Assembly (NCBI RefSeq): GCF_038811545.1
Contig: NZ_CP133319.1
Location: 1,054,001 to 1,118,000, forward strand
Reading direction: 5' to 3'
Source: Rhodoligotrophos sp. CJ14
Lineage (GTDB): Bacteria > Pseudomonadota > Alphaproteobacteria > Rhizobiales > Im1
DNA: 64,000 nt
Shown one piece after another: positions 22,485 to 47,662 of the stretch. Each line of letters begins with the position of its first letter. Within the stretch, counting starts at the first letter, position 1. A program made the position numbers and the translations under genes. The notes under the pieces were generated by a model, which was given only the letters and a program-made list of their open reading frames with translations, was not told the origin of the DNA and made no database searches.

Positions 22485-23195
22485 TCAGTTTCGCTCTGCC
22501 ACTGTCTCGAGCCGTTCGACCACGCGCTCCAGCCTCTCAACGATGGTCTGGTCCACACCTGCCGACCCCGCCGGGCTTGGTGCGGCCGCAAGCCCGCGAT
22601 AAATCATGTCAGTGATCACATTGGCGGTCTCGTCGACCTTGATCTCGCCATGACCCCGCAGATAGGCCCAGGTATAATGCTCGATTGAGCCGAAGATGAG
22701 ATCGCGCACGACCCGCAGCGGAACGTCCTTCCGGAACTCTCCGCTCTCCATGGCCGCCTTTATGATGTCCAGCGTGCGTTTCGTATATTCGCGATTGAGC
22801 TCGAACACGGTGGTCGCGCGATATTCTGGACCCGGCCGGAGCTCCTGAAAGACCAGCTTGCAGAGCGCCGGCTCTTTCTCGATTGACGCCAGATGCTTCC
22901 AGATCATGAAGCGGAGCCGGTTCCAGGTGCCGGTGATCCCCTTCAGCTGCTCGTCGAAATCCGACAGCATCTCGTCGTACCAGCGTTCGACCACCTTGAT
23001 CATCAGGTCGCGCTTGTTCTCGAAATACCGGTAGATCGTCCCCTCGACGACATCGGCCCGGGCGGCAATCTCGGAAATCAGGGCGGCGTCATAGCCATGC
23101 TCCAGGAACACGGCCTTGGCGGCTTCCATGATGTCGGCCACTCTACGCTCGCGGGAGAGGCGGAAAATCTGTCGTCTTTGGAGAACTTCACTCAT
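22485..23195 (-). CDS. TetR-family regulator, likely repressor of acyl-CoA catabolism
   Basis: A 236-residue regulator. The N-terminal helix-turn-helix (residues 15-62) has recognition-helix residues ARADVVEGTIYRYF. The ligand domain follows, then a short Arg/Glu-rich tail (LERVVERLETVAERN). It is aligned along its whole length with the TetR at 35658. It is divergent from the acyl-CoA dehydrogenase gene, and the shared palindrome lies between. The start is ATG 23195; a GTG two codons upstream is an alternative. The ligand is probably an acyl-CoA (inference). Confidence 0.92.
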   Translation of the reverse strand: MSEVLQRRQIFRLSRERRVADIMEAAKAVFLEHGYDAALISEIAARADVVEGTIYRYFENKRDLMIKVVERWYDEMLSDFDEQLKGITGTWNRLRFMIWKHLASIEKEPALCKLVFQELRPGPEYRATTVFELNREYTKRTLDIIKAAMESGEFRKDVPLRVVRDLIFGSIEHYTWAYLRGHGEIKVDETANVITDMIYRGLAAAPSPAGSAGVDQTIVERLERVVERLETVAERN

Positions 23196-23368
23196 CGTCA
23201 CTTGATCAGACTGAATAGGGTAGAAAACCGGACTAGAGCCTACCCGCTTTGCCGACCTTGTCCAAGGAAATCAACGACAACGCGCGGATTGGCAGACCCT
23301 CTGCGCCTTTCCAGCGCAATTTTTCATCTGTCCCCTCGCGGCGTTTTGGGTTATGCCGAATGGACATA

Positions 23369-23383
23369 ATGAATTGAATTCAC
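23369..23383. promoter_or_regulatory. Palindromic operator, copy 1 (upstream of acyl-CoA dehydrogenase)
   Basis: ATGAATT-G-AATTCAC is a 7-1-7 inverted repeat with one mismatch at the outer end. Its inner 13 bases are the exact reverse complement of the site at 32986-32998. It is 54 bases before the dehydrogenase ATG, in the gap shared with the divergent TetR gene. I infer a TetR operator. Confidence 0.65.
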
Positions 23384-23436
23384 TAGCGTTGGTCGAGCGC
23401 CGCGCCAAGACGGCACCGCCTTTGAGGAGACCCCCG

Positions 23437-24639
23437 ATGGACGAGCAGTCTTCCCCCTCCCTTCGCAATGCGCAGCCTTCATTCGATCTCGCGCCGGAGC
23501 AGCAGGAGATCCTCGATGCTGCCGACCGCTTCGCGCGCAACGAGCTGTTCCCGCTCTCCGAGCGCATGGACAATGAGGAATGGTGGCCCGAGGACATTTT
23601 CCCCAAGATCGGCGAGGCCGGCCTGTTCGGTATCACCGTTTCGCCAGACTATGGTGGCTCCGGGTCGGACCTCTTCACCAGTGGCCTCGTTCTCCAGGCT
23701 TTTTCCCGCTGGAACCATGCCCTGGCCTTGTCCTGGGTCGCTCATGAGAACCTCTGCCTCAACAATATCTACCGCAATGGCAACGAGTTTATCCGCCGCA
23801 AATATCTGCCGGGCCTCTGCGACGGCACCAGGATTGGCGCACTCGGCCTGACCGAACCCGGTGCAGGCTCCGATGCCCTTGGCTCAATGCGCACGACCGC
23901 TCGGCGCGACGGCGACCATTACATTCTCAACGGCTCGAAGATCTATATCACCAACGGCCCCGTCGCCGATGTGCTGCTCGTCTATGCCAAAACCAATCCG
24001 GAGCTTGGTCCGAAGGGCATTTCCGCCTTTATCGTCGAAAAGGACTATCCCGGCTTCAGGGTCGCCCAGAAGCTTGTGAAAATGGGCTTCCGCGGCAGCC
24101 AGACAGCCGAGCTCGTCTTCGAGGATTGTCGCGTGCCCGCCGAGAACATGGTGGGCGTGGAGAACCGTGGCGTCTCGGTGGTCATGAGCGGCCTCGATCT
24201 TGAGCGGGCGATGATTGCGCCGATCTGCCTAGGGATTTGCGAGCGCGCGCTCGAGCTTTCGATCGACTATGCCAAGACCCGCAAGCAGTTCGGCCGGCCG
24301 ATCGCCGAGTTCCAGATGGTCCAGTCCAAGATTGCCGATATGTATGTCTGGACCGAAACCGTGCGCACCTTCACCTATCGCGTGCTCGCACAAGCCAATG
24401 ATCTTGAGGTCGGCGGCGGCGGCCGTGGCCATATCCATGCCCTGACCGCGGCCTCCGTCATGTATGCCGCCGAGACCATGGGCCGCGTCCTCTCCGACGC
24501 GGTCCAGATCCACGGCGGCTCTGGCTATATCTGGGAATCAGAGATCAACCGGCTCTATCGCTCGTCCAAGCTTCTCGAGATCGGCGCCGGCACCACTGAA
24601 GTCCGCAAGATGATCATCTCCGGCGAGCTGCTGAAATAG
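23437..24639 (+). CDS. Acyl-CoA dehydrogenase, isovaleryl-CoA dehydrogenase-like
   Basis: A 400-residue FAD enzyme that forms a 2,3-double bond in an acyl-CoA. GLTEPGAGSD, and YITNGPVADV belong to the FAD/substrate site. The region where straight-chain enzymes carry the catalytic Glu reads LEIGAGTTEVRK, whereas a Glu is present in MSGLDLERAMIA, the catalytic position of isovaleryl-CoA dehydrogenase; this indicates a branched substrate. In the Atu pathway the matching role is citronellyl-CoA dehydrogenase (AtuD). GAGGAGA precedes ATG 23437. Confidence 0.93.
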   Translation: MDEQSSPSLRNAQPSFDLAPEQQEILDAADRFARNELFPLSERMDNEEWWPEDIFPKIGEAGLFGITVSPDYGGSGSDLFTSGLVLQAFSRWNHALALSWVAHENLCLNNIYRNGNEFIRRKYLPGLCDGTRIGALGLTEPGAGSDALGSMRTTARRDGDHYILNGSKIYITNGPVADVLLVYAKTNPELGPKGISAFIVEKDYPGFRVAQKLVKMGFRGSQTAELVFEDCRVPAENMVGVENRGVSVVMSGLDLERAMIAPICLGICERALELSIDYAKTRKQFGRPIAEFQMVQSKIADMYVWTETVRTFTYRVLAQANDLEVGGGGRGHIHALTAASVMYAAETMGRVLSDAVQIHGGSGYIWESEINRLYRSSKLLEIGAGTTEVRKMIISGELLK

Positions 24640-24654
24640 CCGGCCCGGTGGCCC

Positions 24655-25602
24655 TCACAGCGGCTTGAGGCCTGCCTCGATCTCGGCGCGGCGATGCTCG
24701 AGGAAGGGCGGCAGTGACAGACGCGTGCCCAATTCCTCCAGCGGCTCATCCGCGGTGAACCCGGGACCATCTGTTGCGATTTCGAACAGGATCCCGTTCG
24801 GCTCGCGGAAATAGAGGCTACGGAAATAGAAACGGTCGATCGGGCCGCTGAACGGCAGCCGGCTTGTCGATTGCAGCCGCTGCGCCCAATCCGCATAGGC
24901 TTCATCCGGTATCCGGAACGCCACATGGTGAACGCCGCCCGCGCCGGGATGCATGCGCGGGCTGTTGGGCTCGACCGCCACATGCAGCTCCGCGGCCGCT
25001 CCCCCGGGCCCCATGCTGAAAATATGCGTGATCGAGCCCTCAACATCCGGGGTGGGATAGCGGCCCGTCGGGCGCATATTGAGAATTTCCATAAGCACGC
25101 GCTCCGTTGGTTCGAGCTCCGGCACGCTCAGCGTGATCGGCCCAAGCCCACGGATCTGGCGGGCTGCCGGCACGGGACCCGCCATCCAGGGATGCGCTTC
25201 ACCCTCACCGCCATCATCCACAAGCCGCAGGCGCTGCCCTTCCGGGTCAGTGAAATCGAGCGAAAGCCGGCCGCCAAGCAGCCTGATCTCTCCACAAGGC
25301 GCGCCATGATCGGCAAACCGCTGCGCCCACCAGGTAAGACTATCCTCGCCCGCCACCCGCAACCCTGTGCGGGAAATACTGTGGATCCCGTGCCGTGCGG
25401 GCTTGGTGGGAAAATCGAAGAACGTAAGGTCACTGCCGGGCGATGCCGCGCCGTCCCCATAAAAAAGGTGGTAGGCGGAGACATCATCCTGGTTCACGGT
25501 CTTCTTGACGAGCCGCATGCCTAGCTCGCCCGTATAGAATGCATGGTTGCCGCGCGCATCCGCCGTGACCGCCGTGAGATGGTGAATTCCATGCAATTCC
25601 AT
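24655..25602 (-). CDS. VOC-family ring-cleaving dioxygenase (MhqO/PcpA-like)
   Basis: A 315-residue protein of two vicinal-oxygen-chelate halves. Metal ligands are probably His in GIHHLTAVT (residue 7 or 8), His in GGVHHVAFR, and Glu in [13 protein letters not shown]. MhqO and PcpA relatives cleave hydroquinones using Fe(II) and are often induced by quinones. It converges with the dehydrogenase gene. A perfect palindrome lies 30 bases upstream of its start. Confidence 0.88.
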
Positions 25603-25631
25603 GCGGCGGCTCCTTGTTGGGCTCCTCCAAG

Positions 25632-25644
25632 TGGCTGTCAGCCA
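25632..25644. promoter_or_regulatory. Perfect 6-1-6 palindrome upstream of VOC dioxygenase
   Basis: TGGCTG-T-CAGCCA is a perfect inverted repeat with a single central base, 30 bases before the dioxygenase start. The one-base centre argues against an RNA hairpin and for a dimeric regulator, perhaps MarR or TetR type. No regulator gene is adjacent. Confidence 0.35.
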
Positions 25645-25737
25645 ACCCGTAAACGATCAGAGGAGCATGGCCCAGTCCCATTGTCGCGCAGCCATCGAGA
25701 AAGCTCAATGCGCACAGCGCCCCCGACCTCACCACCT

Positions 25738-26883
25738 CTATTTCCGGCTGATCGTCACCGAGAACGCGACACTGTCGCCATTTCCGAGTTTGATGAGCAC
25801 CGGCCCCTCCCCGTGAGGCACCGCCAGCCTGCCTGAGAACGGCACCATGTCGAGCGCCATCCCGCTCGGCCGCCTCTGTCGGTCGGCCTGTAGCCTGCCC
25901 TCCGAGAGGACTTGGCCATTAAGCTGGCTGATCACCGCCCTGATCGCGTCGCCCTCGAAGAAATAGTCCGGCGCTTCTCCCGAGAGTTCAACGGGCGGAC
26001 GCACCACACTGTCCGGTTGAGGCGCAGCAATCAGAACGAAGGCAGCCTTGCTCCCTTCGGCACTGCTGACATGCGAGAGCACAATCGGCTCGCTCGCAAA
26101 TACATCGCGCCATTCCCGCGCCAGCATCGGTTCGAGCTCACGGCTCGAAATCTCGATCCGGTATGGCCCCTCCGCATAGGGTCCTGCGAGATAGGGAGCG
26201 AAATGAAATTCGATACCACCGGCTTTCCCTCGTTCGGTGGAAGGCAATAGGGTCATCGCTTCGACGGGCAGCGCCAGATCCTCAAGCCAGATATCATCGC
26301 GCGCTGCATCGTAGTCTCCACCGAGCCGCTCGCGCTTTTTCGCGCGCAGCTTATTCCTCGCGATCACTTTGAGCCGCGCCTCGTTCTCCTTCCATCCTCC
26401 CCCGCCGCTCAGAATATCCTGAGTGGCGACAAAGCGCTTGCGCCGGATGTCATAGGTGATGCCCTCGAACACCAAGTTCCCATGCGCGCCGCCTGTGAAG
26501 ATTTCGGAGACGACCAGCAGGCTTACGAGATCCCGTGACACAAATCGCGGCCGGTGCTCGACTGTCAGCGAGAAGGTTGGTGGCTCAATGGCCGGATCCG
26601 TTCGCCGCAGCTCGCGCTGTTCTGCTGCGGCATCCTCGACGAACTTATTGGCGAGCTGCTCGGCCTCCCGGTGCAAACGGCTGAGCAAGGCCGGCGCGAC
26701 CGATGCCTCCCGTGCGATCGCGATCCTGGCCTCGGCAGCGTCATTGCTTGCATGCACCACCATCGGCCGCTTCTGGCTAGCCTGCGCCACCGCCGGCCGC
26801 TCTTGCGCATCGCTGCCAAGCGCCATGGGGACCATCGAGGCCATTGCAACCATGAAAGCCAGGCAAAAACCTGTTTGTCGCAT
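25738..26883 (-). CDS. Secreted protein with DUF4163/DUF3298-like and Gmad2-like domains
   Basis: A 381-residue exported protein. A signal peptide covers about residues 1-24 (CLAFMVAMASMVPMALGSDA). The middle part has FTGGAHGN, YDIRRKRFVATQDIL and LPSTERGKAGGIEFHF, a pattern I know from DUF4163/DUF3298 (RsiV/PdaC-like) domains. The last 95 residues (IAAPQPDSVVRPPVELSG, FFEGDAIRAVI, DMVPFSGRL) resemble Gmad2, an Ig-like domain of spore-germination proteins. Start ATG 26883 follows AGGGG; ATG 26898 is an alternative. Function unknown. Confidence 0.75.
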   Translation of the reverse strand: MRQTGFCLAFMVAMASMVPMALGSDAQERPAVAQASQKRPMVVHASNDAAEARIAIAREASVAPALLSRLHREAEQLANKFVEDAAAEQRELRRTDPAIEPPTFSLTVEHRPRFVSRDLVSLLVVSEIFTGGAHGNLVFEGITYDIRRKRFVATQDILSGGGGWKENEARLKVIARNKLRAKKRERLGGDYDAARDDIWLEDLALPVEAMTLLPSTERGKAGGIEFHFAPYLAGPYAEGPYRIEISSRELEPMLAREWRDVFASEPIVLSHVSSAEGSKAAFVLIAAPQPDSVVRPPVELSGEAPDYFFEGDAIRAVISQLNGQVLSEGRLQADRQRRPSGMALDMVPFSGRLAVPHGEGPVLIKLGNGDSVAFSVTISRK

Positions 26884-26994
26884 TACCCCTGCGTCCATGA
26901 AATGCAACCTGCCCCGTTCTTGAGCATTCGCAGGACTGAGGCCAGATGATGACCAATCGTCGGCGACATCGGCTGCACGGGAGGCTTTCGCAAC

Positions 26995-27015
26995 CGGATG
27001 ATCGCTTATCATCCG
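26995..27015. repeat. Perfect hairpin upstream of sodB
   Basis: CGGATGAT and ATCATCCG form a perfect 8-bp stem around CGCTT, 113 bases before the sodB start in the divergent gap. There is no T-run on either strand, so it is more likely an operator or UTR element than a terminator. Confidence 0.4.
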
Positions 27016-27127
27016 ACGGATATTCCCATTGCTCCGATTTATGCGCTAGTGTCGCTCCCGGTCTCAAGGGCGGGCGCTGACCGGGCGTTCTCCGCCCATG
27101 ATAATTCTGACTGAGGAGGCTTGTCCC

Positions 27128-27727
27128 ATGGCTTTTGAACTCCCCCCATTGCCTTACGCATATGATGCTCTTGCCCCCTACATGTCCGCAGAGACGCTGG
27201 AGTTTCACCACGACAAGCACCACCAGGCTTATGTGGATAACGGCAACAAGCTGCTTCAGGGTTCGGGCCTCGAAGGCAAGTCCCTGGAGGAGATCGTCAA
27301 AGAGTCCTACGGCAAGAATCAGGGCCTCTTTAACAATGCCGGCCAGCACTACAACCACATCCACTTCTGGAAGTGGATGAAGAAGGGCGGCGGCGGCAAG
27401 AGCCTTCCCGGCGCGCTGCAGAAGGCGGTCGACAGCGATCTCGGCGGCTATGACAAGTTCCGCGCCGATTTCCTCAACGCGGGTGCCACCCAGTTTGGCT
27501 CAGGCTGGGCCTGGCTTGCTGTGAAGAATGGCAAGCTCGAGATCATGAAGACCCCGAATGGCGAGAACCCGCTGGTCCAGGGCGCAACACCGATCCTTGG
27601 CGTCGATGTCTGGGAACACTCCTATTACATCGACTATCGAAATGCCCGGCCGAAATATCTGGAGGCATTCGTCGACAATCTCATCAATTGGGAATATGTC
27701 GAGGAGCTCTACAGCAAAGCCAGCTGA
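27128..27727 (+). CDS. sodB: Superoxide dismutase, Fe type
   Basis: A 199-residue Fe/Mn superoxide dismutase. Metal ligands: His in LEFHHDKHH, His in HYNHIHFW, and Asp/His in DVWEHSYYIDY. The second-sphere Gln lies in NNAGQHYNH, the position used by iron enzymes, and the other position reads ATQFGSGWAW; this favours iron or cambialistic use. A strong GAGGAGG lies 9 bases before ATG 27128. A terminator follows directly. Confidence 0.96.
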   Translation: MAFELPPLPYAYDALAPYMSAETLEFHHDKHHQAYVDNGNKLLQGSGLEGKSLEEIVKESYGKNQGLFNNAGQHYNHIHFWKWMKKGGGGKSLPGALQKAVDSDLGGYDKFRADFLNAGATQFGSGWAWLAVKNGKLEIMKTPNGENPLVQGATPILGVDVWEHSYYIDYRNARPKYLEAFVDNLINWEYVEELYSKAS

Positions 27728-27756
27728 TCTTGCCCACCGGCGAAGGGCGCGTTAAG

Positions 27757-27791
27757 GAGCGGGGCGGGCGTGACGCCCCGCTCTTCTTGTT
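27757..27791 (+). terminator. Intrinsic terminator after sodB
   Basis: GAGCGGGGC and GCCCCGCTC make a perfect 9-bp GC-rich stem (27757-27765 with 27775-27783), followed by TTCTTGTT. It lies 30 bases after the sodB stop and 20 bases before ribB, so it should separate the two genes. Confidence 0.8.
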
Positions 27792-27810
27792 TGTGCAGGA
27801 TTTGGACTGA

Positions 27811-28920
27811 ATGACCGAGGACAACATGACCCTCGACCCCGTCGACCAGGCGGTCGAAGCGGTCAAGGCCGGCGAGATGGTCGTCGTGGTGGATGATGCC
27901 GACCGTGAGAATGAAGGCGATCTGATTATGGCCGCATCCCGCGCGACCGCCGAACAGATCGCCTTCATGATCCGCCATACCAGCGGCATCGTCTGCGCCC
28001 CGCTGACGGCGGAGGAAGCCCGCCGGCTCAGGCTTGATCCCATGGTCTCTCACAATGATGCCCCGATGGGCACCGCCTTCACCGTCTCGGTGGATTACCG
28101 GCCGGGCCTCACCACAGGCATTTCCGCTGAGGAGCGCTGCAACACCGTCCGCGCGCTTGCCAATGGCAATGTCGGCGCTGATGACTTTGTTCGCCCCGGC
28201 CACATTTTCCCGCTGATTGCCAAGAGCGGCGGCGTGCTCATGCGTTCTGGCCATACCGAGGCGGCGGTCGATCTCGCGCGTCTGGCAGGATTGCCGCCGG
28301 TCGGCGTCATCGCCGAGCTGGTCAATGACGATGGCACCGTGAAGCGTGGACCCGATGTGCTGCGCTTCGCCCGCCAGCATGGCCTGAAGATCATATCGGT
28401 CAACGATCTCATCGCCTATCGGCAGGCCCGCGAGCGCCTGGTCGAGCGCACGGCCGACCTGACCCTCGATACCCCCATTGGTCCGGCGCGGGCGATTGCT
28501 TATTCGACGCCCTTCGATGCAGTCCAGCATCTCGCTGTGATCTTCGGGGACGTCTCTGGCGTTCGCGGCGTTCCAACCCGCCTCCATCGCGAGGACGTGC
28601 TCGATGATATCTTCGGCCAGCGCGAAGTGCTGACCTCCGTCTATGACCGGTTTCGCCGCGAAGGACGGGGTGTTCTGGTCTATTTGCGCGAAGGGGCAGC
28701 CGGCGTTCCCGCAGCGGTCTACCGCCGCGAGCAGGCCGACGGCCAAACGGACAGTGATGCCGCCCGCGAGCAGGCTTGGCGCGATATCGGCCTTGGCGCC
28801 CAGATCCTCAGAGATCTCGGTGTCACCTCGATCAATCTGCTGGCCACCTCCTCCCGCCATTATATCGGGCTAACTGGTTTCGGGATTGAAATCGAGGAAA
28901 CCTCTCGATTAGATCCTTAA
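27811..28920 (+). CDS. ribB: 3,4-dihydroxy-2-butanone-4-phosphate synthase with degenerate RibA-like C-terminal domain
   Basis: A 369-residue riboflavin enzyme. The RibB domain (about residues 10-210) has the acidic site DDADRENEGDL, SGIVCAPL, PMGTAFTVSVD, TTGISAEER and GHTEAAVDL. The C-terminal half resembles GTP cyclohydrolase II in shape, but the zinc-binding three-Cys motif and the GD-FGS segment are missing, so it should make only the butanone phosphate. Such half-dead RibBA proteins are known in alphaproteobacteria. I see no FMN riboswitch in the 84-base upstream gap. Confidence 0.92.
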   Translation: MTEDNMTLDPVDQAVEAVKAGEMVVVVDDADRENEGDLIMAASRATAEQIAFMIRHTSGIVCAPLTAEEARRLRLDPMVSHNDAPMGTAFTVSVDYRPGLTTGISAEERCNTVRALANGNVGADDFVRPGHIFPLIAKSGGVLMRSGHTEAAVDLARLAGLPPVGVIAELVNDDGTVKRGPDVLRFARQHGLKIISVNDLIAYRQARERLVERTADLTLDTPIGPARAIAYSTPFDAVQHLAVIFGDVSGVRGVPTRLHREDVLDDIFGQREVLTSVYDRFRREGRGVLVYLREGAAGVPAAVYRREQADGQTDSDAAREQAWRDIGLGAQILRDLGVTSINLLATSSRHYIGLTGFGIEIEETSRLDP

Positions 28921-29043
28921 AAGTTGTATAGTGAGTCCTTATATCCAAACAGGTGCATTGCATCTCCGGGGTAGAGGACTTGACGCTGCGCTCCGCAAGC
29001 GGGCTGAGCGCTACCCTCTGGAGGTGCGAACTCCGGGTGGTAC
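28921..29043 (+). other. Leader region of molybdenum hydroxylase genes
   Basis: The 123-base gap contains GGGTAG (28971) facing CTACCC (29013) and several GC-rich half-stems (CTTGACG...CGCAAG), so the leader could fold. It does not match the Moco riboswitch pattern as I remember it. No other signal recognised. Confidence 0.3.
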
Positions 29044-29505
29044 ATGCGTTTTACATTACACCTGAACGGAACCGTTCATAGTCTTGAGGTCGAGCCCGAT
29101 ACGCCCCTGCTCTGGGTTTTGCGCGAAGAGCTCGGCCTGGTTGGCGCGAAATATGGATGTGGTACTGGCGACTGCGGAGCATGCACCGTTCTGGTCGCAG
29201 GCCAGCCCCGTCGCTCATGCCTTTTGCGGATCGCTCGGCTCGGCAATGCCGAGGTCATCACCATCGAGGGACTGACCGGCCCCGTAGCGTCAGGTGTTCT
29301 TCGTGCCTGGCGCGAAATCGATAACGCGGAATGCGGCTATTGTCAGAGCGGACAAATCCTGACGGCAGTCGCGCTCCTGTCGCGGGTGAGTGAACCGAGC
29401 GACCAACAGATCGATCTCGCCTTCGATGGCAATATTTGTCGGTGCACGGCCTATCTCGGGATTCGCCGCGCCGTTCATTACGCCTCCACGATCATTGAGC
29501 GATGA
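29044..29505 (+). CDS. 2Fe-2S subunit of molybdenum hydroxylase (IorA type)
   Basis: A 153-residue electron-transfer subunit. The plant-type 2Fe-2S cluster uses the Cys in YGCGTGDCGACTVL and SCLL (residues about 39-60); the second cluster uses CGYCQSGQ and ICRCTAY. It passes electrons from the molybdenum subunit encoded next to it. ATG 29044 begins a typical MRFTLHLNG strand. It pairs with the gene at 29536, about 30 bases downstream. Confidence 0.93.
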   Translation: MRFTLHLNGTVHSLEVEPDTPLLWVLREELGLVGAKYGCGTGDCGACTVLVAGQPRRSCLLRIARLGNAEVITIEGLTGPVASGVLRAWREIDNAECGYCQSGQILTAVALLSRVSEPSDQQIDLAFDGNICRCTAYLGIRRAVHYASTIIER

Positions 29506-29535
29506 GCGACAGGCGTGTCCGAACGGGATAAGGCG

Positions 29536-31704
29536 ATGTCGGCCGCCCAATCATATGACCGGCGTGCCTTTTTGCGGATGGCTGCAGGTGGGAGTGGCGG
29601 GCTCCTGATTGGCGGCTGGGTGCCGGTGGCGAGCCGCTCGCCTGCGCAGGGAGACCGTATCCTGCTGCATCCCAGCCCTTTTGTTGCGCTGTCGCCCGAT
29701 GACCGCATCACGGTCATCGTCAAACACCTCGAAATGGGTCAGGGCATTGAGACCGCACTTGCAACTTTGGTTGCTGAGGAGATGGATGCAGCTCGCGCGC
29801 AGCTCAGAACCCAGTTCGCGCCGGTCGACCCCAATCTCTACGGCAATCTTCGCCTAGGCGGTACGCAGGCCACCCTGGCCTCGACCTCATTGGGCAACTC
29901 CTATCTCCAATATCGCCACGCCGGCGCGATTGCGCGCTCTCTCCTGATTTCCGCAGCGGCTCGGACGTGGAAGATCCCGCGTGCTTATATCGCGGTGAGC
30001 GATGGCAGGCTACGCGCGCCGGACGGCCGGTCCTTCAGCTTTGGCGAGCTTGCAACCACAGCAAGCAATCTCGAACTGCCGGTCGCGGTGGAGCTGAAGC
30101 GTTCGGCACATTACTGCTACATCGGCAGGCGCTTTCCCCGGCTCGACGCTCAGGCGAAGACGAGTGGCGCCCCAATTTATGCAGCCGACATCCAGCTCGA
30201 CGATATGCTTGTCGCGACGATTGTCCGGCCGCCCCAGTTCGGGGCAAACCTGCTCCATTACGATGACCGTCGTGCCCGTCTGGTGAAGGGAGTTCTGCAC
30301 GTCCTTCGCCTATCCTCGGGCGTTGCCATTGTTGCGCGCAACAGCTGGGCGGCAATAAAGGCTCGCAGGCTTCTTAATGTCGTATGGGATGACAGTGAGG
30401 CCGAAACGCGCAGCACGTCCGAACTCGCCACTCAGTACCTAAAGCTCCTCGAGGATGGTGGAATGACCATCTACAACGAGGGCGACGTGCACTCCCGCAC
30501 CCGGGGTGCCCCAATGACCATCCAGGCGGATTTTCATTTCCCGTTCCTGCATCATGGACCCATGGAGACCACGGACGCCGTGCTGCACGTTCGCGATGGC
30601 AGCGCCAGGCTCTGGGTCGCCTCACAATTACCCGGGGCCGACCGAAAACATGTCGCGCGGGAACTTGCGATTCCCGAAAGCAAGGTCGAGATCACGACCG
30701 TTTACGCTGGCGGATCCTTCGGCCGCCGCGCCGCGCGCGATGCTCATGTGGCGGTGGAAGCAGCCCAGATCGTCCGCACCTTGGGACTGACGCAGCCCCT
30801 GAAAGTGTTCTGGACCAGAGAGGACGATATTCGCGGCGGCTATTATCATCCCATGTATCTTCATCGGGTTGTCGCCGCACTTGAACGCGACGGCTCCATT
30901 CAGGCCTGGCACCATCGTGTCGTCGGCCAGACTGTTGACGACCTGCCACTGTCCGAAGGAGCGAGCGCGGCGGAACGCTGGCGAGAGAACTTCAAGGCCT
31001 GCGCCGAGCTCCCCTATGCTGTCCCGGACTTTCGCCTGGAATTCCGCGAGGCCAAGTCGCCAATTCCAGTCTTGCCGATCCGTTCTGGCGCGCACGGCCA
31101 CTGCGCTTACGTCATAGAAACCTTCATCGACGACCTTGCTTTCACGATTCACGAGGATCCTGTCGCCTATCGCCGCCGCATTCTGGGGCGTGATCCCCGC
31201 TATCTTCGGGTACTTGATCTGGCAGCAGCCCGCTCCGGATGGGATGGACCCGTCCGAAATGGCCGCTATCGTGGCATTGCCCTCCATCGCACCAGAGGGA
31301 CTTACGTAGCCACGGTTGCCGATGTCGAATTCCCCATGGAAACGGTGTTTCGGGTGACCCGGATCACCTGCGCCGTCGATTGCGGATTAGTGATCAATCC
31401 CGAGATTGTCCGCGCTCAGATCGAAGGCGGGGTGGGCTTCGGGCTCAATGCCGCTCTGCGCGGCGGCATCACGCTTGAAGACGGTCGGGTGGTGCAGCGG
31501 ACCATGGGCGACATTCGGCCTCTGCGCATGAGCGAAATGCCGCCCGTCGACATCTATATTGTTCCCTCTGACGCAAGCCCGACCGGCGTCGGTGAAGCTG
31601 GAGTGCCGACCGTTGCGCCAGCCATCGCCAATGCGATTTTTGCAGCGACCGGCATCAGGATCCGCTCCCTGCCCTTCTCCGCTACCCGGCTTATCCACCG
31701 CTAG
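29536..31704 (+). CDS. Molybdopterin-binding subunit, isoquinoline 1-oxidoreductase-like (IorB type), Tat-exported
   Basis: A 722-residue catalytic subunit. Residues 8-32 carry a twin-arginine signal (YDRRAFLRMAAGG), as usual for periplasmic IorB-like enzymes. Later motifs include EMGQGIETALATL, YAGGSFGRRAA, HGHCAYVIE and the C-terminal catalytic Glu in GVGEAGVP. Such enzymes oxidise aldehydes or N-heterocycles and pass electrons to a cytochrome c. ATG 29536 follows GGGATAAGG; GTG 29515 is an alternative. The stop TAG belongs to the following repeat. Substrate unknown. Confidence 0.92.
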   Translation: MSAAQSYDRRAFLRMAAGGSGGLLIGGWVPVASRSPAQGDRILLHPSPFVALSPDDRITVIVKHLEMGQGIETALATLVAEEMDAARAQLRTQFAPVDPNLYGNLRLGGTQATLASTSLGNSYLQYRHAGAIARSLLISAAARTWKIPRAYIAVSDGRLRAPDGRSFSFGELATTASNLELPVAVELKRSAHYCYIGRRFPRLDAQAKTSGAPIYAADIQLDDMLVATIVRPPQFGANLLHYDDRRARLVKGVLHVLRLSSGVAIVARNSWAAIKARRLLNVVWDDSEAETRSTSELATQYLKLLEDGGMTIYNEGDVHSRTRGAPMTIQADFHFPFLHHGPMETTDAVLHVRDGSARLWVASQLPGADRKHVARELAIPESKVEITTVYAGGSFGRRAARDAHVAVEAAQIVRTLGLTQPLKVFWTREDDIRGGYYHPMYLHRVVAALERDGSIQAWHHRVVGQTVDDLPLSEGASAAERWRENFKACAELPYAVPDFRLEFREAKSPIPVLPIRSGAHGHCAYVIETFIDDLAFTIHEDPVAYRRRILGRDPRYLRVLDLAAARSGWDGPVRNGRYRGIALHRTRGTYVATVADVEFPMETVFRVTRITCAVDCGLVINPEIVRAQIEGGVGFGLNAALRGGITLEDGRVVQRTMGDIRPLRMSEMPPVDIYIVPSDASPTGVGEAGVPTVAPAIANAIFAATGIRIRSLPFSATRLIHR

Positions 31705-31760
31705 GAGCATTTTCGAACGAAGTGGATACCGCTTCGCGCGAGGAAAATGCGACCAAGCAA
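31701..31760. repeat. Rhizobiales-type hairpin repeat, copy 2
   Basis: Starts with CTAGGAGC, then GCATTTTC (31707-31714) pairs perfectly with GAAAATGC (31743-31750); CGAAG and CTTCG pair inside. It matches the element at 22332 in order and spacing. The CTAG supplies the stop codon of the upstream Mo-hydroxylase gene. Confidence 0.75.
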
Positions 31761-31765
31761 AGGAC

Positions 31766-31797
31766 GAGCATTTTCGAGCAAAGTGGATACCTGGTTC
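31766..31797. repeat. Rhizobiales-type hairpin repeat, truncated copy 3
   Basis: GAGCATTTTCGAGCAAAGTG and the following GATACCTGGTTC repeat the left half of the preceding copy; the right arm is missing where the SDR gene's stop lies (31809). It is a tandem partial duplication of the repeat. Confidence 0.65.
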
Positions 31798-31808
31798 AGC
31801 CGTCCGGC

Positions 31809-32660
31809 CTATTTGAAATAGTCGGGCTTCGGGATCGCCCAGAACTCTCCCCATAGGCGGCCGCCGCCATCAACGGTGAGCGTTTCGCCCGTGATGAACT
31901 TGCCCGAAGGCCCTGCAAGATAGGCGCAGGCTTCGGCGACATCGAAGGCATCCCCGAAGCGCATCATCGGGTTCGACCGCTTATAGCTCTCGCGCGCCTC
32001 ATCTGAATAGACCACGTGCCCCTCGGTCATGATGGCACCGGGGGCCACGCAATTCACGCGTATGCCATACGGGATCCACTCCACGGCCACGGATCGCGTG
32101 AGACCGATCACGCCGGCTCGGGCGGCGCAGGTATGCGCGACCCCTGGCATGCCGCGGTCGACCACCGTGACAATGTTGACGATCGAGCCCGGAATGCCCG
32201 CATCCCGCCAGCACTGGGCCGCCACCTGCATCATCGCCCAGGTACCATTGAGATTGGTATCGATGACGGCGTTCCAGCCCTTGGCGGAATAGTCGATGGC
32301 GGCCTGCGGGAACTGCCCGCCCGCATTGTTGATGAGGATCGTCGGCAGCCCCGATCCTCCCTTTGCCCCAGCGAACAGGGAGTCGATGGAGTCCCGGTCG
32401 CGAATGTTCAGCGCACGGGTTTGAACCTTGAGGCCTGCTGCCCGCATCGGTGTCGCAGCGGCATCAAGCCGCTCAGGTTTGCGGCCCGCAATGATGATCT
32501 CGGCACCGAGGCGGCCAAACAACCAGGCCGTGGCCTTGCCCAAGCCCGAACCGCCCCCTGTGACCAGGACCCTTTGGCCGACGAACAGATCGCTTCTGAA
32601 GACCGGCTGATAGGCGGCAAGCTCTTCATCGCTCAATCCAAATTGTCGCGCTTCCGTCAT
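31809..32660 (-). CDS. SDR-family oxidoreductase, AtuB/DECR-like, atypical active site
   Basis: A 283-residue short-chain dehydrogenase/reductase. NAD(P)-binding TGGGSGLG is at residues 34-41 and NNAGG near 111. Where most SDRs have Tyr-x3-Lys, this one reads VAHTCAARAGV (about residues 174-184), so Tyr is Thr or His and Lys is Arg. Similar HSGAARAG or HAGAAKAG strings occur in 2,4-dienoyl-CoA reductases and in SDRs of acyclic terpene clusters. The start is ATG 32660 with GGTGGAG just before it; ATG 32705 is possible. It is divergent from the hydratase operon. Confidence 0.85.
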   Translation of the reverse strand: MTEARQFGLSDEELAAYQPVFRSDLFVGQRVLVTGGGSGLGKATAWLFGRLGAEIIIAGRKPERLDAAATPMRAAGLKVQTRALNIRDRDSIDSLFAGAKGGSGLPTILINNAGGQFPQAAIDYSAKGWNAVIDTNLNGTWAMMQVAAQCWRDAGIPGSIVNIVTVVDRGMPGVAHTCAARAGVIGLTRSVAVEWIPYGIRVNCVAPGAIMTEGHVVYSDEARESYKRSNPMMRFGDAFDVAEACAYLAGPSGKFITGETLTVDGGGRLWGEFWAIPKPDYFK

Positions 32661-32835
32661 CTCCACCCGAACTTCCCGCCGGTCATTGCTGTGCCGGCTT
32701 TTCATTTTGGCATTGACACCCGCCAGCGGATGCCCGTTAATGAGGCTCACTCACTTAACCGCATCCCCGGTCCGAAGTCAACGCGCGGGTCCACGGGGAA
32801 ATGAGAGTCGCAAAGCGGCCGAGAGTGGAGGAAAC

Positions 32836-32874
32836 ATGCAGGAGCCCGGAAAGCTGAGAGCAACTTCGCGTTAG
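32836..32874 (+). CDS. Short ORF, 12 residues, possible leader peptide or gene relic
   Basis: ATG CAG GAG ... CGT TAG encodes MQEPGKLRATSR and is preceded by GTGGAGGAAAC, a near-ideal ribosome site at proper spacing. No attenuator hairpin follows at once. It may be a leader peptide, or the 5' end of a lost gene. Only the ribosome site supports it. Confidence 0.3.
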   Translation: MQEPGKLRATSR

Positions 32875-32984
32875 ATCGCCTTCACCAAGGCCGACGTCAT
32901 ACCGTCATAGGGATTAACGGGCCGCGAGTCCTCACATCTCCTCCTCCGGAGCGGGAGCCTAGGACTCTACGTCATCCCGTTTTG

Positions 32985-32999
32985 ATGAATTCAATTCAT
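32985..32999. promoter_or_regulatory. Palindromic operator, copy 2 (upstream of hydratase operon)
   Basis: ATGAATT-C-AATTCAT is a perfect 7-1-7 inverted repeat. Its inner 13 bases are the reverse complement of the site at 23370-23382. It is 36 bases upstream of the chosen hydratase start, where an operator would block the promoter. Its presence argues against the longer open frame starting at 32982. Confidence 0.7.
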
Positions 33000-33035: not shown

Positions 33036-33818
33036 ATGTCCGATCCCGTTCTCATGGAGCGCCGCGGTCCCGCGCTATGGATCACGATCAACCGGCCGGA
33101 GCGGCGCAATGCCATCAACGAAGCCGTGATCCGTGCCATCGGTGGCGGCATCACCGAGGCGCAAGGCATGGATGATGTGCGCGCGATCGTTCTCACGGGC
33201 GCGGGCGACAAGGCATTCTGCGCAGGCGGCGATCTCAACCCCACCGCTGAGGGTATTCCCTTCGTCGTGGACCCCGCCAATCCCCGCAATTACGTCGTTG
33301 ATCTCTTCAAGCTGGTCGAGGATTGCAGCCTCCCGATCATCGCACGGGTGAACGGCCATGCCTTGGCTGGCGGCCTCGGGCTCCTCTGTGCCTGCGATCT
33401 TGCCATAGCGGCTGACCATGCCACGTTCGGCACGCCCGAATCAAAGATCGGGCTCTTCCCGATGATGATCCTGCCCTATCTCATGCGCACTCTCTCACGC
33501 CGCCGGCTGATGGAGCTGTGCATCACGGGGGACGCGCTCACCGCCGCCGAAGCGCTCGAAGCAGGCCTCGTCAATAAGGTGGTGCCTGCCGGTGAGCTTG
33601 ATCAGGCCACCGACGAACTCATCACACGCATTGCCGGGCGCTCCCCCACCGCCATTCGCCTGGGCAAGATGGGCTTTCATGCCATGCAGGACATGAGCAT
33701 CCGTGAGGCACTCGAATTCGCGCAATTGATGCTGCCCATGATGGCGCGCACCGAGGATGCCCGCGAAGGCATGCGCGCTTTCCAGGAGAAACGTCAGCCC
33801 AACTGGACGGGGCGGTGA
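33036..33818 (+). CDS. Enoyl-CoA hydratase/isomerase family (AtuE/LiuC-like)
   Basis: A 260-residue crotonase-fold enzyme. Oxyanion-hole segments are FCAGGDLNP and HALAGGLGLLCACD; catalytic Glu residues are in FGTPESKIGLFP and probably near DALTAAEALEAGLV. In Atu or Liu pathways this step hydrates the 3-methylglutaconyl-type CoA made by the carboxylase. Starts at 33030 and 33036 are adjacent; I take ATG 33036 (MSDPVLMERRG). It begins the operon: the AtuA gene starts 1 base after its stop. Confidence 0.88.
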   Translation: MSDPVLMERRGPALWITINRPERRNAINEAVIRAIGGGITEAQGMDDVRAIVLTGAGDKAFCAGGDLNPTAEGIPFVVDPANPRNYVVDLFKLVEDCSLPIIARVNGHALAGGLGLLCACDLAIAADHATFGTPESKIGLFPMMILPYLMRTLSRRRLMELCITGDALTAAEALEAGLVNKVVPAGELDQATDELITRIAGRSPTAIRLGKMGFHAMQDMSIREALEFAQLMLPMMARTEDAREGMRAFQEKRQPNWTGR

Positions 33819-33819
33819 C

Positions 33820-35661
33820 ATGAGCGCCATGGGCGACAAAATGCTGCGAATCGGCTGCGGCGGTGGCTTCTGGGGCGATACCGGGGAAGGTCCGGCGCAA
33901 CTCGTCCGCTCCGGTCAGATCGACGTGCTGGTGGTGGACTACCTCGCCGAGATCACCATGTCGCTTTTGGCGCGCGCCCGGGCCAAGGACCCGGCGGGCG
34001 GCTTCGTTCCGGATTTCGTCCAGGCGATTGGCGCGCTCGGGCCCGAACTTGCCGAGCGCCGCATCCGCGTGGTGGTCAATGCGGGTGGGGTCAATCCGCT
34101 CGGTTGCCGCGATGCCCTCGCCGCAAAACTCGCGGCAAGCGGCGTGTCGCTCAAGATCGGTGTGGTGCTCGGCGATGATGTCAGCCCGCTCATGGAGCGG
34201 CTGCGCGAGGAAGGCGTCACCGAAATGTTCAGCGGGGCGCCGCTGCCGGCCAAGCCGTGGAGCGCCAATGCCTATCTCGGCGCCTTCCCGATCGCGGCGG
34301 CCCTTGCCGAGGGTGCCGACGTGGTGATCACCGGGCGCTGCGCCGACAGCGCTCTGGTGCTGGGACCCATGATCCATGCCTTCGGCTGGCAGCCTAGCGA
34401 CTATGACCGCCTGTCCATGGGCAGCCTCGCCGGCCATATCGTCGAATGCGGCGCGCAAGCAACCGGCGGCCTTGCCACGGACTGGCAGGATGTCGAGGGC
34501 TGGGACGATATGGGCCTCCCGATCGTCGAATGTAGGTCCGACGGCAGCTTTATCGTTACCAAGCCCTCCGGCACTGGCGGCAAGGTGACACCGGAAACAG
34601 TCTCAGAGCAGATTGTCTACGAGATCGGCGATCCCGCGGCCTATATCCTGCCCGATGTGGTGGCGGACTGGCGCGATGTGCGGCTGACCCAGGTTGGCCC
34701 TGACCGGGTTGAGGTCACCGGCGCGCGCGGCCGAGCGCCTACCCGCCATTACAAGGCCAGCATCACCGCACCCGACGGCTTCAAAGCAGTCGGCACCCTG
34801 ATGATCGGCGGCCGCGATGCAGCCTTGAAGGCCCGGCGCACCGCGGAGGCGATCCTCAAGCGCAGCCGGCGGCTGATGAACGCGCGTGGGCTCCAAGATT
34901 TCCGCCGCGTGTCCGTCGAGGTGCTGGGCGCCGAAGACACCTATGGCCCCCATGCACGCGCTGCCCGCTCGCGCGAGGTCATCCTCAAGGCGGCAGTTCA
35001 CCACGACGACAAGGCGGCTTGCGAGATCTTCTCCCGGGAATTCCTGCCCAGCGCCACCGCCATGGCCCAGGGCATCACCGGCTTTGCCGCCGGCCGGCCC
35101 AAGGTATCGCCAGTGGTGCGGCTCTATTCCTGCCTGGTGGATAAGAGCTGGCTCAATCCCACCATCGTCGTGAACGGCGAGGAGCAATTGGTCAGCACCT
35201 TCATTCCCAACGAGGACGCCAACCCAGAGATTACACCTGACCTTCTCAGCCCGGCTCCGCCCTCTGTTCCGGAAGGCCCGCGGGTCACCCTTCCGCTCAT
35301 CGCCCTGGCCTATGGCCGCAGCGGTGATAAGGGCGACTTTGCCAATATCGGCATCCTCGCGCGGCGGCCCGAATTTTTGGCCGTGATCGCCGAGGCGGTC
35401 ACACCCCGCGCGGTCGCCGACTATTTCGCCCATATTCTCGAAGGGCCGGTCGAACGCTTCCCCCTTCCCGGCCTTGGTGGCTTCAACTTTCTCCTGCACA
35501 ACGCGCTGGATGGTGGCGGAATTGCCTCCCTGCGCCATGATCCGCAGGGCAAGGCTTTCGCCCAGATGCTGCTCGATATCCCGGTCCCCGTTCCCGCCGC
35601 ATGGCTCGCGTCGGGCGGCCCGCTGCAGAACTCACCCTATGTCGGCGAGGTCCTGGCATGA
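33820..35661 (+). CDS. atuA: AtuA-family acyclic terpene utilisation protein (DUF1446)
   Basis: A 613-residue protein of the AtuA/DUF1446 family. Conserved strings are RIGCGGGFWGDT at the N-terminus, VVVNAGGVNPLGC near residue 87, and VITGRCADSALVLGP near residue 170; a C-terminal AtuA-like domain starts near residue 495 (RVTLPLIALAYGRSGDKGD). The gene is in Pseudomonas clusters for citronellol and geraniol degradation; its chemistry is unassigned to my knowledge. It starts 1 base after the hydratase stop and overlaps the TetR gene by 4 bases. Confidence 0.9.
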   Translation: MSAMGDKMLRIGCGGGFWGDTGEGPAQLVRSGQIDVLVVDYLAEITMSLLARARAKDPAGGFVPDFVQAIGALGPELAERRIRVVVNAGGVNPLGCRDALAAKLAASGVSLKIGVVLGDDVSPLMERLREEGVTEMFSGAPLPAKPWSANAYLGAFPIAAALAEGADVVITGRCADSALVLGPMIHAFGWQPSDYDRLSMGSLAGHIVECGAQATGGLATDWQDVEGWDDMGLPIVECRSDGSFIVTKPSGTGGKVTPETVSEQIVYEIGDPAAYILPDVVADWRDVRLTQVGPDRVEVTGARGRAPTRHYKASITAPDGFKAVGTLMIGGRDAALKARRTAEAILKRSRRLMNARGLQDFRRVSVEVLGAEDTYGPHARAARSREVILKAAVHHDDKAACEIFSREFLPSATAMAQGITGFAAGRPKVSPVVRLYSCLVDKSWLNPTIVVNGEEQLVSTFIPNEDANPEITPDLLSPAPPSVPEGPRVTLPLIALAYGRSGDKGDFANIGILARRPEFLAVIAEAVTPRAVADYFAHILEGPVERFPLPGLGGFNFLLHNALDGGGIASLRHDPQGKAFAQMLLDIPVPVPAAWLASGGPLQNSPYVGEVLA

Positions 35662-36359
35662 GCCCGCAGGCCCGCCGCATCGTCAACCGTTTGCCGCGCG
35701 AGCGGCGCGAACGCGACATTCTGGCCGCTGCGAGCGCGGTCTTTGGCGAACAAGGTTATGAGAATGCCTCCATGGCCGAGATTGCCGCGCGCGCTGGCGT
35801 CGTCGAAGGCACCATTTACAAATACTTCAACAACAAGCGCGATCTCATGCTGCAGGTGCTGAGCCGCTGGTATGAGGGCATGCTCGCCAATTACGAGGAG
35901 CATCTGTCTGGCATCCAGGGAACCGAAAACCGGTTGCGCTATGTCATCTGGCGCCATCTGGCCTTCATTGCAGCCAATCCGGCTCTCTGCCGCGTGTTCT
36001 TCCGCGAGGTGCGCACGGGCGGTGATTATGATCGCTCAACCATCCAGGACCTCAACCGCCGCTACACACATTTCGTCATCGCCATCCTGCGCGAAGGGCT
36101 TGCCCGGGGTGACATCAAGCATGACCTCTCCTTGGGTCTCGTGCGCGATCTCATTTACGGCGCCATCGAGCATCACACCTGGAAATATGTCTGCGGCCTA
36201 GGTGAGCTCGATCCAGATGCTGTGGCCGATCAGCTCTGCCTTGTGGTGTTCCGCGGCATTGCAGCCGATGCGGTCGGAGATCGCCTGGCCGAAACGAGCG
36301 CCAGGCTGGAGCGCCTCGCCGACCGTTTCGAGCAGATCGCGGGGAGGAGCTCCGGATGA
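35658..36359 (+). CDS. TetR-family regulator, paralogue of the one at 22485
   Basis: A 233-residue repressor-type protein. The recognition region ARAGVVEGTIYKYFNNKRDL differs from the other TetR by only a few residues, and the ligand domain also aligns throughout (NPALCRVFFREVR, LVRDLIYGAIEHHTW). Its ATG lies in the ATGA overlap with AtuA, and its stop overlaps livF, so it is cotranscribed with the genes it probably controls. In Pseudomonas the corresponding role is AtuR. Confidence 0.92.
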   Translation: MSPQARRIVNRLPRERRERDILAAASAVFGEQGYENASMAEIAARAGVVEGTIYKYFNNKRDLMLQVLSRWYEGMLANYEEHLSGIQGTENRLRYVIWRHLAFIAANPALCRVFFREVRTGGDYDRSTIQDLNRRYTHFVIAILREGLARGDIKHDLSLGLVRDLIYGAIEHHTWKYVCGLGELDPDAVADQLCLVVFRGIAADAVGDRLAETSARLERLADRFEQIAGRSSG

Positions 36360-41767: not shown

Positions 41768-41810
41768 CACAAGAACTGCCTGAACCGGGCGCGAATTGGG
41801 AGGAAACAGA

Positions 41811-42995: not shown

Positions 42996-43064
42996 GTCGA
43001 ACCGGACCACGCCGGATAGGCCACCTCCGGCGTGGTGCCGCAAACCCCAGAACCGAGTATTCCG

Positions 43065-44543: not shown

Positions 44544-45046
44544 TGAAGCACGTCTTTGTTCTCGATGATGCCGACTATGCGCTCTGGCTTGGCCGCGACG
44601 CGAGTGGCTATCGCATGGCGCTGGGTGATGAGCGCTTTTCTGTGGCCCTGGCCCCCAACAACCGTGGTCGTGACCATCTCACGGTCGATGGTGTCGAGAC
44701 CTCCGCGCTCATCGCCGTCGATGGCGACATCGTGCACATCCATGTCGATGGCGTGACCCGCAGCCTGCAGTGGTTAGACTCCATCGCCCGCTATGCCGCC
44801 CAGTCCGGCGCATCCGCCGACGACATCATCACGGCCCCCATGCCGGGCACGGTGATTTCCGTCTCGGTGGAGGCCGGCCAGCAGGTTGCGCGCGGCGAGA
44901 CCCTGGTGGTGATCGAGAGCATGAAGCTCGAAACGGCGATCAAGGCCCCCCGCGATGGCATCGTGGAGATCGTTCACGTGAGCGCGGGGCGAACCTTCGA
45001 CCGGTCTGCCCCCCTGGTCACCCTCGCGCCCGCGACAGGAGCCTGA
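44543..45046 (+). CDS. Biotin carboxyl carrier protein subunit
   Basis: A 167-residue protein. The C-terminal biotinyl domain (residues about 92-165) begins ITAPMPGTVISVSV and has the biotin Lys in VIESMKLETAI. The first 90 residues correspond to the linker and BT domain normally between BC and BCCP in fused alpha subunits. It overlaps the BC gene by one base (TGATG). Confidence 0.92.
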   Translation: MKHVFVLDDADYALWLGRDASGYRMALGDERFSVALAPNNRGRDHLTVDGVETSALIAVDGDIVHIHVDGVTRSLQWLDSIARYAAQSGASADDIITAPMPGTVISVSVEAGQQVARGETLVVIESMKLETAIKAPRDGIVEIVHVSAGRTFDRSAPLVTLAPATGA

Positions 45047-47613: not shown

Positions 47614-47662
47614 CAAGAGCCGTGGGCAGCCATTTTCGAGGAAACGCCTGGGAGGTCACGCA

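What the first reader, a model, noticed from the sequence alone, without database searches (positions are those of the whole stretch)
23369..32999. Same 7-1-7 palindrome before the acyl-CoA dehydrogenase and before the hydratase operon
ATGAATTGAATTCAC (23369-23383) and ATGAATTCAATTCAT (32985-32999) share a 13-base core that is identical on opposite strands. Each lies 36-54 bases before a start codon of a fatty/branched-acid catabolic gene. Chance identity of two 13-mers in exactly these two promoters is unlikely. They should be operators of one regulon.
Basis: partly seen in the sequence, partly recalled or inferred. Interest (0 to 1): 0.72.

Follow-up and report, generated by a model that had tools for sequence, protein, structure and literature searches.

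The report
Conserved TetR operator pair controlling catabolism
Two copies of one short DNA palindrome mark the likely switches of two neighbouring operons for breaking down branched fatty-acid-like compounds, and similar switches recur beside the same kind of regulator and genes in related bacteria; it is a well-supported but ordinary kind of local control circuit.

Summary
ATGAATTGAATTCAC (23369-23383) and ATGAATTCAATTCAT (32985-32999) share a 13-bp core on opposite strands and are the two best matches in the 4.81-Mb genome. The regulon reading is supported by comparison. The broad operator is TGARYNNNRYTCA, whose only exact matches in the window are these two. The stricter TGARYTNARYTCA has 2, 1 and 1 matches in the window's genome and two congeners, all at these promoters. 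Related palindromes recur before orthologous dehydrogenase (ACAD), hydratase, AtuA, transporter or carboxylase genes in most loci that encode one FadR-like TetR clade, with exceptions. On 16 loci outside the motif's training set, the top-scoring site lay in a target promoter region in 12 (column-permuted motifs: mean 1.7). In about half of the promoters scanned the site fills the -35/-10 spacer or overlaps the -10, which predicts repression. Most likely TetR1 (22485-23201) represses both promoters; its paralogue TetR2, inside the second operon, may read the same operator. Inducer (inferred): a pathway acyl-CoA. The operon resembles an Atu/Liu-type pathway plus a Liv-type transporter; its operator differs from AtuR's. 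New member of a known kind. Binding, ligand and substrate are untested.

The parts
23370..23382 (.). operator O1, TGAATTGAATTCA, in the TetR1-ACAD divergent intergenic region
   Evidence: sites at the same promoter in congeners TGAATTGAGTTCA and TGAACTTAGCTCA
32986..32998 (.). operator O2, TGAATTCAATTCA, upstream of the ECH-AtuA-TetR2-liv operon (between this and the divergent SDR gene)
   Evidence: sites at the same promoter in congeners TGAGTCGAACTCA and TGAACATCACTCA
23361..23366 (+). candidate -35 TGGACA of the ACAD promoter (inferred)
   Evidence: T[GA]GACA, 17-bp spacer holding the operator, in the window genome and two congeners
23384..23389 (+). candidate -10 TAGCGT of the ACAD promoter (inferred; poor match here, TAATGT and TAATCT in congeners)
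22485..23201 (-). TetR1, FadR-like TetR regulator, divergent from ACAD (start codon uncertain)
23437..24639 (+). acyl-CoA dehydrogenase (ACAD)
31809..32750 (-). SDR oxidoreductase, divergent from the hydratase operon (start uncertain)
   Evidence: neighbour in several relatives
33036..33818 (+). enoyl-CoA hydratase (ECH), first gene of the operon
33757..35661 (+). AtuA family protein (real start probably 33820)
35601..36359 (+). TetR2, paralogue of TetR1 (48%), in the operon (real start probably 35658)
36356..37156 (+). LivF-like ABC ATPase
   Evidence: named by eye from the sequence; homologues
37144..37998 (+). LivG-like ABC ATPase
   Evidence: named by eye from the sequence; homologues
37995..39845 (+). 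acyl-CoA ligase
39845..40717 (+). LivH-like permease
   Evidence: named by eye from the sequence
40721..41767 (+). LivM-like permease
   Evidence: named by eye from the sequence
41796..42995 (+). periplasmic binding protein (LivK-like)
43032..44543 (+). biotin carboxylase subunit
44540..45046 (+). biotin carrier protein
45053..46657 (+). acyl-CoA carboxyltransferase, MCC/GCC type
46678..47613 (+). nitronate monooxygenase-like protein (probable operon member)
   Evidence: membership from spacing only
47660..49219 (+). second acyl-CoA ligase (probable operon member)
   Evidence: membership from spacing only

Best explanation
O1 and O2 are operators of one local TetR regulon. A dimer of the FadR-like repressor TetR1 (possibly also, or alternately, TetR2) binds the palindrome TGARYNNNRYTCA, which lies in or next to the core promoter, and blocks RNA polymerase at the ACAD promoter and at the hydratase-AtuA-TetR2-liv-ligase-carboxylase operon. 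When a substrate is taken up and activated to its CoA ester, that acyl-CoA binds the TetR C-terminal domain and releases the DNA, so uptake, activation and breakdown of a branched (isoprenoid-like) acid switch on together. Shown here: the sites, their rarity in the genome, their recurrence at orthologous promoters, co-occurrence with the TetR clade. Inferred: binding, repression, TetR1 as main binder, the ligand and the substrate.
For: Rarity: TGARYNNNRYTCA has exactly these two matches in the window; TGARYTNARYTCA has 2, 1 and 1 matches in G000, G001 and G002, all at these promoters, reversed control 0. Recurrence: in the 13 order genomes with the cluster (6 genera), TGAATNNNATTCA within 320 bp upstream of ECH has 0 mismatches in 5 of 13, up to 1 in 8 of 13 and up to 2 in 12 of 13; upstream of ACAD 0 in 6 of 13, up to 1 in 9 of 13 and up to 2 in 11 of 13 (2 mismatches is weak evidence alone). 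The congener ECH site TGAGTCGAACTCA changes both half-sites together. Co-occurrence: the TetR clade is in 13 of 397 order genomes and these are the 13 genomes with the best AtuA matches (22 of 397 with AtuA). Loci outside the training set: 12 of 16 top-scoring sites in target promoter regions that are 2.4% of the sequence; column-permuted motifs 1.7 on average, 1 of 1000 reached 12. Trans case: G425 has the exact core before AtuA-SDR on one contig and the TetR-ACAD pair with a one-mismatch site on another. Nine other AtuA-homologue loci without this TetR beside them have no TGAATTNAATTCA site with up to 2 mismatches. Promoter geometry: operator in the spacer or over the -10 at 8 of 16 sites scanned. 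FadR-like TetR: best NCBIfam model FadR for both (107 and 101 bits, below the 200-bit cut-off), best fold matches of TetR1 are FadR structures.
Against: No binding or expression data. The ECH sites of G002 and G001 miss the strict pattern by 1 and 2 bases, though they fit TGARYNNNRYTCA. G180 has the TetR and the cluster but no site with up to 2 mismatches before ECH or ACAD. L225 and L226 have no good site near the TetR gene. The looser TGAATNNNATTCA has three further exact places in G000, one at the start of a GNAT-like frame, one inside a frame and one not examined. The core is not exclusive: exact or one-mismatch copies occur in genomes that lack the clade (47 of 61 genomes with up to 1 mismatch), 1 to 17 places per genome in the 13 class genomes, and the exact core lies in a longer palindrome before an unrelated TetR gene in G1012 and G828. 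The window's hydratase promoter has no good -35/-10. O1 is about 170 bp from the TetR1 start, so autoregulation is not shown. The TetR1 model is of modest confidence (pLDDT 68; best fold match TM 0.58 by query, rmsd 6.5 A).
Confidence: 0.85

Rival explanations
1. TetR2, not TetR1, is the repressor of both operators (self-regulation from inside its own operon), and TetR1 acts elsewhere.
For: TetR2 is encoded in the regulated operon, an autoregulated layout. Its recognition region (VVEGTIYKYF) is close to that of TetR1 (VVEGTIYRYF). G180 and G1083 carry a TetR of the group between AtuA and livF.
Against: Clusters with a single TetR of the group and related operators in f27 and G365 use members of the TetR1 side of the tree. 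TetR1 sits divergent to ACAD with the operator between, as in the f19 genomes, whose TetR belongs to neither window clade.
Confidence: 0.2
2. Both TetRs bind the same palindrome as competing repressors with different inducers, giving the regulon two inputs.
For: 48% identity with nearly the same recognition region. In the tree TetR1 and TetR2 split before the genus, and both are kept in the window genome and two congeners. Only two good sites exist in the genome for two regulators.
Against: No ligand or binding data. TetR2 could have targets with a different motif.
Confidence: 0.4
3. The similarity of the two sites is chance or shared coding sequence.
For: A longer reading frame runs over both sites, and the hydratase one is in frame in one of two congeners.
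Against: the frame is broken in one congener at each site.
Confidence: 0.02

Closest known systems
AtuR/RdmA of Pseudomonas (TetR repressor of the atu/dmg cluster)
   Same: TetR-family repressor beside an AtuA-containing, carboxylase-dependent cluster, with palindromic operators near the promoter (passages of PMC9973270).
   Different: The AtuR operator is AGCAAGCGCTTGG/CCAAGCGCTTGCT, unrelated to TGARYNNNRYTCA. The present cluster adds a Liv-type ABC transporter and has its dehydrogenase in a separate unit. AtuR and TetR1 were not aligned.
FadR (YsiA) of Bacillus, TetR family
   Same: Best NCBIfam model of both TetRs; for TetR1 the second PDB-sequence match (3whb, after an unnamed regulator 1vi0) and the top fold matches. 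An acyl-CoA-responsive repressor of beta-oxidation genes (passage of PMC6449355).
   Different: Scores are about half the NCBIfam cut-off. The FadR operator (recalled, not seen in a call: TGAATGAMTANTCATTCA) shares the TGAAT half but has wider half-site spacing.
FadR of Sulfolobus acidocaldarius (FadRSa)
   Same: TetR repressor which by its abstract binds only four genomic sites and represses one 30-kb lipid-catabolic cluster, released by acyl-CoA (abstract and passages of PMC6449355).
   Different: Archaeal, 16-bp motif, different genes.
LiuR, LiuQ, FadP, PsrA regulons of Proteobacteria
   Same: Regulators of branched-chain or fatty-acid catabolism (passages of PMC5343134).
   Different: LiuR is MerR-type; LiuQ and FadP are described there as unique to betaproteobacteria; their motifs were not compared here.

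Membership tests
TetR-family repressor with local palindromic operator | N-terminal TetR HTH domain | tested here: met
   PF00440 at 56.8 and 66 bits, cut-off 24
TetR-family repressor with local palindromic operator | conserved palindrome in the promoter of the divergent gene and of other targets | tested here: met
   exceptions G180, L225, L226
TetR-family repressor with local palindromic operator | ligand-released DNA binding | not testable with these tools
   needs EMSA and reporter assays
FadR (TetR-type, NCBIfam NF053878) | score above curated cut-off | tested here: not met
   107.3 and 100.6 bits against 200
FadR (TetR-type, NCBIfam NF053878) | FadR-like fold | tested here: met
   top Foldseek hits 3whb, 5gp9, 5gpa for TetR1; model of modest quality, rmsd 6.5-7.1 A
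AtuR regulon | operator AGCAAGCGCTTGG | tested here: not met
   the two sites here are TGAATTGAATTCA and its complement; AtuR operator as quoted in PMC9973270
AtuR regulon | AtuA with dehydrogenase, carboxylase and hydratase genes | tested here: met
   PF07287 AtuA 474 bits; ACAD, ECH, biotin carboxylase and carboxyltransferase present
Geranyl-CoA versus 3-methylcrotonyl-CoA carboxylase | Gly (GCC) or Phe (MCC) at the Phe191 position, and the 3-residue insertion in MCC | tested here: inconclusive
   Ala162 aligns with residue 191 (Phe) of the MCC beta chain 8j4z (read from the alignment; that the paper's Phe191 is this residue is my inference); the segment has MCC length (87 residues against 84 in GCC chain 5ikl)

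The most novel reading that the evidence does not exclude
A FadR-like TetR regulon spread over several families of the class, not found described in the searches made here, for an Atu-like branched-acid pathway, in which two anciently diverged paralogous repressors with nearly the same recognition helix share the same two operators and so gate one pathway by two different acyl-CoA signals.
Probability: 0.35. Interest if true: 0.55.

Novelty: new member of a known kind. Interest (0 to 1): 0.42.

Why it matters
It gives a regulator, a DNA motif and a target list for a catabolic cluster whose substrate is not established, across several families of one bacterial class. The motif ties unlinked genes (as in G425) to the pathway, and inducer screening with the TetR would be a direct route to the substrate. 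The paralogous pair is a test case for how duplicated repressors come to share operators.

Tried and rejected
Coding-sequence explanation: judged unlikely, since the frame over each site is broken in one of two congeners. AtuR-type operator: rejected by sequence. Extra regulon members in the window genome: none convincing among the further places seen; one exact TGAATNNNATTCA place (C1:2565032) was not examined. TGAATGGCATTCA or its complement occurs in 13 of the 14 genomes and was set aside; the copy in G000 that was looked at is the start of a GNAT-like frame. A relative search in named genome contigs gave one distant hit only. A first tree with five distant outgroups had very long branches and was replaced by one without them; even there 8 of 30 inner branches are open and some rows are long. 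The G180 row of the promoter scan used a misplaced site and is not counted among the 8 of 16. Literature: one search searched five spellings of the motif and found 2 papers, on other subjects by title and not read; (50 papers with three or more terms, 10 listed) showed no title on this regulon; some searches were word searches on neighbouring subjects. Passages or sections were seen of five papers only (PMC9973270, PMC3511530, PMC5343134, PMC6449355, PMC4673880). Kazakov 2009 and Yeo 2017 are not held, so a published prediction of this motif is not excluded. Covariation over 42 hand-picked sites (G828 left out) showed co-change only at the 4/10 pair; 30 of the 42 fit TGARYNNNRYTCA exactly, 11 miss by one and 1 by two. 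These sites were chosen by motif, so this is weak evidence.
Full report
Observation. The two palindromes are present as described. Their 13-bp cores are reverse complements of each other. The one before the hydratase is a perfect 7-1-7 palindrome; the one before the dehydrogenase is 6-1-6. In the window the pattern with up to 2 mismatches has 2 matches against 0.10 expected. In the whole genome (one contig, 4.81 Mb) there are 5 places with up to 2 mismatches, 0 for the reversed control, and the two best are these two. By the open frames around them, two of the other three fall inside coding frames and one lies beside an XRE-like gene.

Setting. O1 lies between TetR1 (22485-23201, minus) and an acyl-CoA dehydrogenase (23437-24639, plus). 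O2 lies upstream of an operon that by spacing runs from the enoyl-CoA hydratase (33036) through AtuA, TetR2, LivF, LivG, an acyl-CoA ligase, LivH, LivM, a binding protein, biotin carboxylase, biotin carrier and carboxyltransferase (to 46657), probably on to a second ligase (the Liv names of the ATPases and permeases are by eye). An SDR gene diverges from it. The set ACAD, carboxylase, hydratase and AtuA resembles the Atu/Liu scheme. The carboxyltransferase is closest in the PDB to 3-methylcrotonyl-CoA carboxylases and to a chain deposited as propionyl-CoA carboxylase. At the residue that blocks large substrates in MCC (Phe191; Gly162 in geranyl-CoA carboxylase; one section and passages of PMC4673880) it has Ala by the alignment, which suggests a substrate larger than methylcrotonyl-CoA. 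The matching of the numbering is my inference, and its segment length is of the MCC type, so this is a lead only.

Regulators. TetR1 and TetR2 are 48% identical. Both have TetR_N and YsiA-like C-terminal domains and match the Bacillus FadR model best, at about half its cut-off. A TetR1 model of modest confidence (pLDDT 68) matches FadR structures first, at TM 0.58 by query and rmsd 6.5 A.

Conservation in the genus. G002 and G001 keep both TetRs (82% and 78% for TetR1) and the clusters. Their dehydrogenase sites are TGAATTGAGTTCA and TGAACTTAGCTCA, and their hydratase sites TGAGTCGAACTCA and TGAACATCACTCA. The strict pattern TGARYTNARYTCA, chosen after seeing these sites, has 2, 1 and 1 exact matches in G000, G001 and G002, all at these promoters, none for the reversed control. 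The two congener hydratase sites miss it by 1 and 2 bases but fit the broader TGARYNNNRYTCA, which in the 64-kb window matches only O1 and O2.

Conservation in the order. In 13 genomes with the cluster (6 genera, these three included), TGAATNNNATTCA within 320 bp upstream of the hydratase has 0 mismatches in 5 of 13, up to 1 in 8 of 13 and up to 2 in 12 of 13; upstream of ACAD 0 in 6 of 13, up to 1 in 9 of 13 and up to 2 in 11 of 13. Where the two genes diverge (G029, G071, G106, G365) one site can count for both. G180 has none. G029 and G365 also have a site before the liv genes.

Co-occurrence. A profile of the TetRs (A1) at E up to 1e-35 finds 13 of 397 order genomes. These are exactly the 13 genomes with the best AtuA matches among 22 of 397 with AtuA. 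In the class 20 of 385 genomes have such a TetR.

Test outside the training set. A motif built from 17 order-level sites was run on 16 loci of 13 class genomes, fetched for their TetR gene. They cover 17 of the 23 places outside the window genome that one search listed; the six weakest genomes were not fetched. I had already looked at these loci for sites before fixing the list of target genes, so the test is independent in the motif but not fully blind; some of the genomes are congeners of one another. The top-scoring site of each locus fell in a target promoter region (350 bp upstream of ACAD, ECH, AtuA, TetR, livF, livG or SDR) in 12 of 16. These regions are 2.4% of the sequence. Column-permuted motifs gave 1.7 on average; 1 of 1000 reached 12, and the identity permutation is expected 1.4 times. 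Of the four misses, L222 has its site just before a biotin carboxylase gene and L221 between an acyl-CoA ligase and a DsbA/HCCA-isomerase-like gene (named by eye), both plausible targets not on my list; L225 and L226 have no good site near the TetR.

Trans case and control. In G425 the TetR-ACAD pair with its site is on another contig than AtuA-SDR with the exact core just before its ribosome-binding site, as a trans-acting regulon would show. Nine other AtuA-homologue loci (L147-L152, L154-L156) had no TGAATTNAATTCA site with up to 2 mismatches and no such TetR beside them. Three of these lie in genomes that have the TetR elsewhere; four of the others were not searched for the TetR; none was chosen at random.

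Mechanism. At the ACAD promoters of G000, G001 and G002 the operator lies in a 17-bp spacer between T[GA]GACA and TA[AG][TC][GC]T. In the four f19 genomes scanned the -10 (TAT[CT]AT after TTGCCA and 16 bp) lies inside the operator, and at the G365 liv promoter TTGACA-17-TTCATT overlaps it. The other 8 of 16 sites scanned, the window's hydratase promoter among them, gave no convincing pair. The geometry predicts repression by exclusion of polymerase. Which TetR: a tree of 33 TetRs puts TetR1 with the cluster TetRs of f27, G365 and others, and TetR2 outside that group (17-row group, support 97/96), so the pair is older than the genus (8 of 30 inner branches open). TetR1 is therefore the likelier main repressor, and sharing of the operator by both is plausible. 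The acyl-CoA inducer is inferred from FadR relatives; in FadRSa four sites in one 30-kb cluster are relieved by acyl-CoA (abstract and passages of PMC6449355).

Against. The core is not exclusive to this regulator. With up to one mismatch it occurs in 47 of 61 relatives and 1 to 17 times in each of 13 class genomes, most of these places not examined. The exact core lies in a longer palindrome before an unrelated TetR gene in G1012 and G828. TGAATNNNATTCA has three more exact places in G000 besides O1 and O2. No binding, expression or ligand data exist here.

Known systems. AtuR/RdmA controls a similar cluster through AGCAAGCGCTTGG (passages of PMC9973270), a different operator. The Bacillus FadR operator (recalled) shares TGAAT half-sites at a wider spacing. 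The motif searched as letters gave no relevant paper, but key subscription papers were not held. Verdict: real, conserved, a new member of a known kind.

Noticed in passing
L237 1501-1513 (G1012) and L242 1501-1513 (G828): TGAATTGAATTCA inside a longer palindrome (TTGAATTGAATTCAA...) just before a TetR gene of another subfamily.
   Followed up: partly
G000 C1:4568536-4570365 (L147): Second AtuA homologue (54%) in the window genome, in another catabolic cluster without a site of up to 2 mismatches.
   Followed up: partly
L082 963-1686 (G002): About 700 bp between AtuA and TetR2 in this congener, where the genes overlap in the window.
   Followed up: no
L224 (G1083 C1): Two TetRs of this wider group and several palindrome copies around ACAD and AtuA in one 20-kb locus, besides another TetR-ECH-ACAD locus in the same genome (L222).
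   Followed up: partly
G000 C1:565958-565970 and places in 12 other genomes: TGAATGGCATTCA (or its complement) occurs in 13 of the 14 genomes searched; the G000 copy looked at is the start of a GNAT-like reading frame.
   Followed up: partly
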